In this document: positions 52,501 to 55,500 of the stretch, piece after piece
Layout: each line of letters starts with the position of its first letter
How positions within the stretch are numbered: position 1 is the first letter of the stretch
Assembly: GCA_026874595.1 (NCBI GenBank)
Contig: CM049321.1
Coordinates: 8,928,979-8,992,978, forward strand
Origin: Sipunculus nudus
Taxonomy: Eukaryota > Annelida > Sipuncula > Golfingiida > Sipunculidae
Length of the DNA: 64,000 nucleotides
Direction of reading: 5' to 3'
Translations under genes and position numbers: made by a program
Notes under the pieces: model-generated
The model's input: the letters and a program-made list of their open reading frames with translations, nothing else
What the model was told of the DNA's origin: nothing
The model's database searches: none

Positions 52501-55500
52501 ATATGAAGGCTTGCCAATATATCCAGTTTTTGGGACATGAATACTTGTTCATACAGCATGCATATGCACATGCAGTTTTGACCACTAGGTACTGAGTGCT
52601 TCTGCTTTGTTGAATTTTATGGGCATTAGGATTTAGGACTCATCACGTGCAGGCTTGTTTTGAAATGGAGGTATTCCAGAGATCATTTACATAAAAAGTT
52701 TCATGTAAGATGAAAAGCATTACCTAATGCAGCTGTAGACATATTTAACCCTTTCCTACTATTAAGTGGCATGTTCTGTGTGTCTGTTTATGTTAAGTTT
52801 TCTAAACAAACTGTTAAAGTGCATGAACAAATTGTACGTAATATAACAATCACTGGCATTTTAGGGAAAATTTAGCTTTGGGATAAAATTCTAACTGTAG
52901 ACTTCCTTAGCAATTATACAAGTTTGGGAAATAAGGTGGTTAACAAAATCTATACTGGATCAGGTTAAGAATGGACCAGACTAGACCAACACAAATGACA
53001 TTTGCCCACAAGATATTTGATACAAAAAAAAAATCACACTAGACAACCGCCCACAAAAAAAATTGCTACCAAGTCAGTTTGCTGGGTGTAAGATAATGGT
53101 TGCTGTAGCACTGGGACAGATGAGACAATATTTTATGCAAAAACCTTTCCAATGTTTACTTAAGAGCCCATTTTCCCTAATCTCAATGCAATATACATGT
53201 AGAATGTTAGTTGTCGATCAATTTACAGTATTTACACTTTTTATAAATATAACTCTGATAAAAAGTAGTTGGCATTAGTCTTCAAACTCGTAAACATTGA
53301 GGGCAATTGTCCTTGGAGCAACTGTCTTGGAAGCATTTGCTTTCTGAGCAAATGCCATGGAATCAAAATGCACACCCACATTTACCTTCCGATCTTAGAA
53401 ATAGTCTTACCTGGAAGCCATCTTGCAAAAGTATTGGTGTGAATGTGGAGCGAGGTGTACAATATCAGCATTGTAGACAGAGAGGAGAAGACTCAAAATA
53501 TGGAGCCTGAAAATAATGTAAAATCATCACCAGCTGGAATGTAGTGAAATACAATATCACATTGTAGACAGAAAGGAGAACAATCAATACATGGAGCCTG
53601 ATAATAATGTTTAACAGTCACAAATTGGAATGTAATGAACACATGTCTGTACTGAAATACAATAGTGAAAGAGGCAAAATATGGAGCCTGAAAATAATGT
53701 AAATTAGTCTCCAATTGGAATGTAATGAAATACACCATCTGTATGGTAGCATGGCAGTAGAAGACACAAAATATGGAGCCTGAAAATCACATAAATACAG
53801 TCACAAATTGGAATGTAATGAAATACAGTACAGTGAAACTCCTCTAAAGGGGCCGGACAATTTGTCCATTATAGCGGGTGTCTGCCCCCGGTCGGGCAGG
53901 GGGTCGGGCCTGCTTGTGCTGTTGGGGCCAATGTCCCAAGGTAGTAAAAATGCTTGGTCGTACAAACGACTGTCCATCATGCCCTGGGTTTCATTGTATC
54001 GGCATTGTACAAGAGAAGATTAAGAGTTTGAAAAGGTTTGCAAAGTTTTCAAATTTGCAATATTGACTAAATGGGAAAGAATCCTTATTAATAAGATAAC
54101 TTATCAACACAAGTGACAGGTCATTTACATATCAACACAAGTGACAGGTCATTTACATATCAACACAAGTGACAGGTCATTTACACAGTAAAATATAAAC
54201 TTTATTTATTTTACATGGATTGTACAACTAGTTATAATAACTAATACGAGGCACTCTCCTTGACTTTGATGTTGGCGCTCGTAGTCAGTAAGGGTGGAGG
54301 AAACCACTGACCTAGGGCAAACCATGTACTACAACCCACTCTCAAAGCCATGCTGGGAATGGGACCTAGGTCGCCAGCAGAGAGGGCTGAGCGTGTTACC
54401 ACTCAAGCTGTCCAGGCCTGTTTTACACAGTAACTTCTGAGTGGCCTCTCACATGCTGTAAACTCCTGCCCATGGGTACAAACTGAACCGGTGTAGGGCT
54501 TGACATTAACAGTAAACTAGCCATGTGCAAGTAAAAGTTCCAGAAAAAGGTATTATGGTAACTAAAAGTAGCTTCCTACTTGCCCAACTGCCCTATTTGC
54601 TTTAATTACATAAAGGCCTGAAAACAATCTTTGGGTCTGGTATCTAACGGAGTAATGAAAAGACTTCTGTGTGGAAGTGTGGTAACATCAAGTTTGGTTA
54701 ACATATATTCCAAAGGACAAGCCTTCAGATACCCATTAGAAGTAATAGGGTCACAGTATTTAAATATTTTAAACTACATGTAGTAGGTGCATTTAAAATC
54801 TGCTTCTTAACTCTGTATCTGATGTGGAACACACTTAAAGACGGTAAAGTTCCTAAACGAATATTCACCTGCAGGTGCCACAACATGTTCTCAGTGGGGT
54901 AACGAAAGTCTGTTATACTGCATGTGGACTGGTATATATTACAATATGCTATGTGGTAAAATTTATGCTTAAAATATGCATGAAAATCTAGTAAATCAAT
55001 CATGAATACTTTTTCCTCGATTAATTTTTGTAGACACATCATATTTACTTCTGGGCAATGAAAATGATGTCAATTTAACAAGAATTTTTTCTAAACTTAT
55101 CCCGAAAGTCTCTGCACATTCAAGCCCGTCTACCGAGACTTCAGTGGCTTTAAACTCTTTCGTGGGGAACCTGCGGTGTGTGTATATGAACCATCTGCTG
55201 GTTGTCAGGTAACACCTTATTTTGGCGGGTAGAAAGTTAATCCGAGCTAGACATGATGTCACTGGCAAAGGACATTGACAAACAAACACACCCACAAAAA
55301 CAAACAAGTTTGCGCATTTTTTACTGGCCTACTCCAGAAGTTGTCTCTGTTTCTCCCCCCTGTGAAAATGTTTTATTTGACATCATTTGCCTTTCTGGTG
55401 TTTTACAAAGTTTTCCTATTATCGCCATTTTCCACCTGGCCCTGACAGGGCTCTCATGTGAAAGTTCTTGTACAGTTCTGGTATCATTGATTGACCCATC

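What the first reader, a model, noticed from the sequence alone, without database searches (positions are those of the whole stretch)
53411..53833. A splice acceptor plus half a conserved exon is tandemly amplified next to the real exon
Four 91-bp units (53501, 53592, 53682, 53774) each repeat tttcag|GCTCCAT and the start of hyccin exon b; only the first continues into a full exon with a donor. I read the frames from each spare acceptor: unit 2 is open for 30 codons but the 91-nt shift then hits TGA inside the real exon; units 3 and 4 hit stops within their own or the next unit. Any use of a spare acceptor would therefore give a truncated product. This could be a poison-exon control or simply a decoy load on splicing of a core PI4KA-complex subunit.
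Basis: partly seen in the sequence, partly recalled or inferred. Interest (0 to 1): 0.75.

Follow-up and report, generated by a model that had tools for sequence, protein, structure and literature searches.

The report
Duplicated splice site in hyccin gene
A short stretch that includes the start of one exon of an animal gene has been copied so that it stands four times in a row; it looks like a kind of small repeat ("mirage") already known from lancelets, where splicing is reported to be undisturbed, so it is most likely a harmless old DNA repeat rather than a control switch.

Summary
On the minus strand, four units of 90-92 bp (array 53827-53458; first exon-like bases 53779, 53687, 53597, 53506) each carry about 43 nt of intron end, CAG|GCTCCAT and about half of hyccin exon b (53506-53411). 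Only the last runs on to a donor (CAG|gtaaga). Joined in silico to the upstream exon (end 62539), each of the three spare acceptors meets a premature stop. The array is far above chance, matches one place in the genome, and its copies are too diverged to be an assembly stutter. Unit 2's acceptor is degraded (tatcag); unit 3's is identical to the real one from -16 to +13. The junction shows TGTA microhomology, as after a simple tandem duplication. Arrays of period 40-300 are common here (24 in 264 kb sampled). [quoted passage not shown] Best reading: an old, mostly neutral mirage. A poison or decoy role is not excluded; the only sequence hint for it is a weak, post-hoc invariance at the acceptor. 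No RNA data and no related species could be examined, and the host was not identified.

The parts
53458..53827 (-). four-unit tandem array across the intron / exon b boundary
   Evidence: TRF period 91, 4.0 copies, score 363; one match in the genome
53732..53823 (-). unit 4 (farthest upstream); spare acceptor, first exon-like base 53779; identical to the real site from -8 to +13
   Evidence: use would give stop at 53706
53641..53731 (-). unit 3; spare acceptor, first exon-like base 53687; identical to the real site from -16 to +13, with a CTAAT branch-point-like motif that the other three units lack
   Evidence: use would give stop at 53620
53550..53640 (-). unit 2; degraded spare acceptor (tatcag), first exon-like base 53597; identical to the real site only from -4 to +7
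   Evidence: use would give stop at 53467 inside exon b
53458..53549 (-). unit 1: the real intron end and the first half of exon b
53411..53506 (-). hyccin exon b, 96 nt, acceptor tttcag|G, donor CAG|gtaaga
62539..62660 (-). hyccin exon a (upstream exon), leaves AG of a split codon
51826..52014 (-). hyccin exon c (downstream exon), 189 nt, open in phase with exon b

Best explanation
An old tandem duplication of the intron-exon b boundary, seeded by short microhomology (TGTA on both sides) and expanded to four units by slippage or unequal exchange: a 'mirage' minisatellite. Using the exon-proximal acceptor restores the ancestral mRNA exactly, so the three upstream copies became part of the intron and drift by point changes and indels. 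Occasional use of a spare acceptor (unit 3 is the best candidate) would add 91-273 nt and a premature stop, and such mRNA should be removed by nonsense-mediated decay. Shown: anatomy, frames, stops, one place in the genome, junction microhomology, divergence. Inferred: main use of the proximal acceptor, decay of mis-spliced RNA, neutrality.
For: Contiguous 90-92 bp units and TGTA shared by the intron before the array, the exon at its end and the unit 2-unit 1 junction. Copies diverged and mosaic in relation, with indels. One match in the genome, so a local duplication and not a dispersed repeat. Tandem arrays are frequent here: 24 of period 40-300 in 264 kb, 6 of 24 (this one included) without a relative elsewhere in the sample. 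Spare units lack a convincing donor: best GT in their exon-like halves 3.1 against 11.0 for the real donor (recalled score table). Same anatomy in lancelet mirages, with normal splicing reported.
Against: An 11-column invariant run over the acceptor in all four units is more than random placing of the invariant columns gives (P 0.004 and 0.023; 0.016-0.031 for such a run anywhere). Unit 3's splice site equals the real one from -16 to +13 and has the better branch-point-like motif, so why it should lose the competition is not explained by these scores. Predicted RNA folding does not hide unit 3 or 4.
Confidence: 0.78

Rival explanations
1. Poison-exon or decoy control: the spare acceptors compete with the real one; the extended, stop-bearing exons send part of the hyccin mRNA to decay, or hold up removal of this 9-kb intron.
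For: Each of the three spare acceptors leads to a stop; acceptor core invariant in 4 of 4 units; unit 3 site equal to the real one.
Against: Unit 2's acceptor is degraded and ranks 150 of 525 AGs by a recalled score table; 15 AGs elsewhere in the intron and exon score at least as high as the real site, so decoy-like sites are nothing special (16 of 525 including the real one); lancelet mirages are reported not to disturb splicing.
Confidence: 0.1
2. Remains of a duplicated whole exon (mutually exclusive or cassette exons) that lost their second halves.
For: Repeated acceptor plus exon start; weak GT sites exist in the units.
Against: No second half of exon b and no good donor in the spare units; the distance from unit to unit (90-92 bp) leaves at most about 50 nt for an intron, which I judge too short (inference).
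Confidence: 0.03
3. Assembly or sequencing artefact.
For: None found; no reads could be examined.
Against: Copies differ by substitutions and indels, unlike a stutter of one sequence.
Confidence: 0.02

Closest known systems
'Mirage' minisatellites of lancelets: Adh3, globins BflGb6 and BflGb9, TnC, PGBD5 (PMC3087553, passages; PMC3902484, passages and section 17; the Adh3 paper itself is not held)
   Same: Minisatellite-like tandem duplication across an intron-exon boundary; BflGb6 repeats the 3' end of an intron plus the 5' part of the next exon, as here; copies carry splice-site AGs.
   Different: Another gene; shorter units than BflGb6 (90-92 against 150-160 bp) and more diverged (63-81% ungapped to the exon-side unit here; 81-100% in BflGb6). 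Normal splicing and unit-number variation are reported there and untested here.
Internal tandem repeats that change human gene structure in segmental duplications (PMC2812944, passages)
   Same: Minisatellites at exon-intron boundaries.
   Different: There recent expansions, linked to intron gain and longer coding repeats; here no new intron or coding change is seen.
Intron gain by tandem duplication of splice-like sites (PMC2891723, passages; PMC4974935, listing and start of abstract)
   Same: Tandem duplication that includes a splice site.
   Different: Here the intron was there already and only its acceptor end is repeated.
Decoy or poison exons, such as the OGT decoy exon (PMC12017769 and others, listing and start of abstract; details recalled)
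   Same: Extra splice sites next to a real exon, with unproductive products if used.
   Different: As I recall them, decoy exons are regulated elements with their own donor; neither is shown here.

Membership tests
Mirage minisatellite | Tandem repeat units that span an intron-exon boundary | tested here: met
Mirage minisatellite | Only the authentic copy belongs to the full exon with both splice sites | tested here: met
   on sequence:
Mirage minisatellite | Normal mRNA splicing in spite of the copies | not testable with these tools
   no RNA data held
Mirage minisatellite | Unit number varies between haplotypes or individuals | not testable with these tools
   one assembly only
Poison or decoy exon | Inclusion gives a premature stop | tested here: met
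   3 of 3 spare acceptors, in silico
Poison or decoy exon | Own donor (cassette form) | tested here: not met
   best GT in the exon-like halves 3.1 against 11.0 (recalled table); extended exons using the real donor remain possible
Poison or decoy exon | Conservation of the element | tested here: inconclusive
   acceptor run invariant in 4 of 4 units, P 0.004-0.03, but no relatives and unit 2 degraded
Poison or decoy exon | Regulated use in RNA | not testable with these tools
   no RNA data held

The most novel reading that the evidence does not exclude
The spare acceptors are kept by selection as a graded decoy: the unit 3 and unit 4 acceptors divert a share of hyccin transcripts into stop-bearing, decaying mRNA, and unit number sets the share, so that a minisatellite acts as a dosage dial for a subunit of the PI4KA complex.
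Probability: 0.06. Interest if true: 0.65.

Novelty: new member of a known kind. Interest (0 to 1): 0.27.

Why it matters
If neutral, it is a diverged example of a boundary-spanning minisatellite in a gene not named in the mirage papers I saw, and a natural test of how the spliceosome picks among acceptors of equal sequence (units 1 and 3 are identical from -16 to +13). If the spare acceptors are used, it would be a control of a lipid-kinase complex subunit that depends on repeat number.

Tried and rejected
Dispersed repeat or transposon: rejected; one match genome-wide with the 423-bp query (the tool warns that it skips very common words) and no relative in the 264-kb sample.

RNA structure hiding the spare acceptors: fold of 53980-53330, mean unpaired probability from -20 to +5: unit 4 0.45, unit 3 0.53, unit 2 0.33, real 0.44; no clear difference that would favour the real site over units 3 and 4.

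Boundary duplication as a habit of this gene: of 8 hyccin exons found, the acceptor of exon b alone has copies within 3 kb, and 0 of 8 donors (its exon c acceptor probe lay inside the exon and was repeated at the right place, without copies).

Genome-wide rate of boundary duplications: not measured; the loci could not be cut out.

Lineage: the mollusc haemocyanin family PF14830 gave no match, but nothing rang in the control genomes either, so this says nothing. Host left open.

Acceptor and donor scores use human-like frequency tables recalled from memory, not made from this species. One search took the end of exon a two bases too far, so its reading frames are wrong; one search replaces them (donor scores and identity counts do not depend on that). 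Literature searches with little bearing: listings only; no paper.

Full report
What is there. The minus strand of the window carries part of a hyccin (FAM126-type) gene. The six-frame search of the 1.43-Gb genome with PF09790 gives two hits, both exons on this contig and strand, from 15 candidates, 15 scored; no second hyccin gene appeared. tblastn with human hyccin follows an exon series from about 129.9 kb (window coordinates continued upstream) down to 35.6 kb. Seven exons were placed with splice-site-like borders and an eighth, exon c (52014-51826). Exon b is 53506-53411, 96 nt, after tttcag and before gtaaga; it completes the split codon AG|G left by exon a, which ends at 62539. Exons a+b+c joined match the Hyccin profile at E 2.7e-27; exon b alone at E 6.8e-5, slightly under the curated cut-off.

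The array. The last ~43 nt of the intron and the first ~49 nt of exon b are repeated: four units in all, 53827-53458, with exon-like starts at 53779, 53687, 53597 and 53506. TRF found no array of period 40 or more in 200 surrogates of the neighbourhood. The 423-bp query matches one place in the genome.

Spare acceptors. CAG|GCTCCAT stands in 4 of 4 units, tttcag in 3 of 4; unit 2 reads tatcag. Identity with the real site runs from -16 to +13 in unit 3, -8 to +13 in unit 4 and -4 to +7 in unit 2. By a recalled position-weight table, among 525 AGs of the intron and exon b, unit 3 and the real site tie at ranks 15 and 16, unit 4 is 33rd and unit 2 150th. Unit 3 alone has a CTAAT branch-point-like motif within 45 nt. 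The best GT in the exon-like halves of the spare units scores 3.1, against 11.0 for the real donor. Joined to exon a, unit 4 stops at 53706, unit 3 at 53620 and unit 2 at 53467, which is 293, 207 and 54 nt before the end of the extended exon. By the recalled 50-55 nt rule, decay is expected for units 4 and 3 and is borderline for unit 2.

Origin. The unit 2-unit 1 junction reads GATATTGTA-TTTCAC; the real exon reads GATATTGTA-CACCTC and the intron before the array ACTGTACTGTA-TTTCATT, so the breakpoints share TGTA. This is what microhomology or slippage leaves. Relations between units are mosaic: in the intron part unit 1 is nearest unit 3 (0.84), in the exon part nearest unit 2 (0.88). Mean pairwise divergence is 0.19 in the intron part, 0.08 in exon +1..+13 and 0.38 in the rest. 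The last figure is probably inflated by indels, since a 17-nt junction motif lies out of register in unit 3 (family D3). Such divergence speaks against a recent or assembly origin and predicts that relatives share the array (inference).

Selection or drift. An 11-column invariant run covers the junction: permutation P 0.004 over 94 columns, 0.023 over the 58 well-aligned ones; for such a run anywhere 0.031 and 0.016 in two alignments. This is the one pointer to kept acceptors. It is post hoc, with four related copies, and exchange between units could make it too. Against it stands unit 2's degraded acceptor. That unit 3 should be passed over is not explained by splice-site score or by predicted folding.

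Base rate. In 264 kb (20 stretches of 10 kb, 8 of them next to the window, and the window) there are 24 arrays of period 40-300, 7.8% of the bases. 6 of 24, this one included, have no relative elsewhere in that sample. With the many exons of an animal genome some arrays should fall on acceptors (inference); I could not count them. In hyccin itself, exon b's acceptor is the only one of 8 with copies, and none of 8 donors has any.

What is known. [quoted passage not shown] RT-PCR suggests undisturbed splicing. PMC3902484 (passages and section 17) adds imperfect 60- and 108-bp repeats in lancelet PGBD5 and cites TnC. The Adh3 paper is not held. The hyccin array has the same anatomy, so on anatomy I file it as a new member of this kind; two further features, normal splicing and variable unit number, could not be tested. 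Whether mirages outside lancelets are in print I cannot say beyond the searches made, of which those that named mirages led to these two lancelet papers and one unrelated pine paper.

Host. Not identified. Contig C17 is 61 Mb and C18 only 52.5 kb, so there seem to be 17 chromosome-size contigs; the PF14830 search was empty without a working control. A lancelet is not formally excluded.

Verdict.

Noticed in passing
window 60668-61075: A 20-bp minisatellite of about 20 copies lies in the same intron as the array (between exons a and b).
   Followed up: no
window 54102-54185: Three nearly perfect 28-bp copies about 280 bp upstream of the array in the same intron: a second, younger-looking small tandem duplication.
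   Followed up: no
window 14491-15257: A 30-bp minisatellite of about 25 copies, a multiple of three, holds an open frame of 200 aa (14551-15153, plus strand) with a weak match to Pfam Extensin_2 (E 6e-6), perhaps only by its repeat composition.
   Followed up: partly
G000:C2:44848559-44854198 (outside the window): Several myosin-head exon matches on one strand cover overlapping profile positions (about 90-153, and 153-204), as a set of alternative exons in one muscle myosin gene would.
   Followed up: no
L006, L012, L014, L021 and L012, L015, L021: Tandem arrays with units of about 278 and 180 bp recur on several contigs of this genome: dispersed repeat families.
   Followed up: partly
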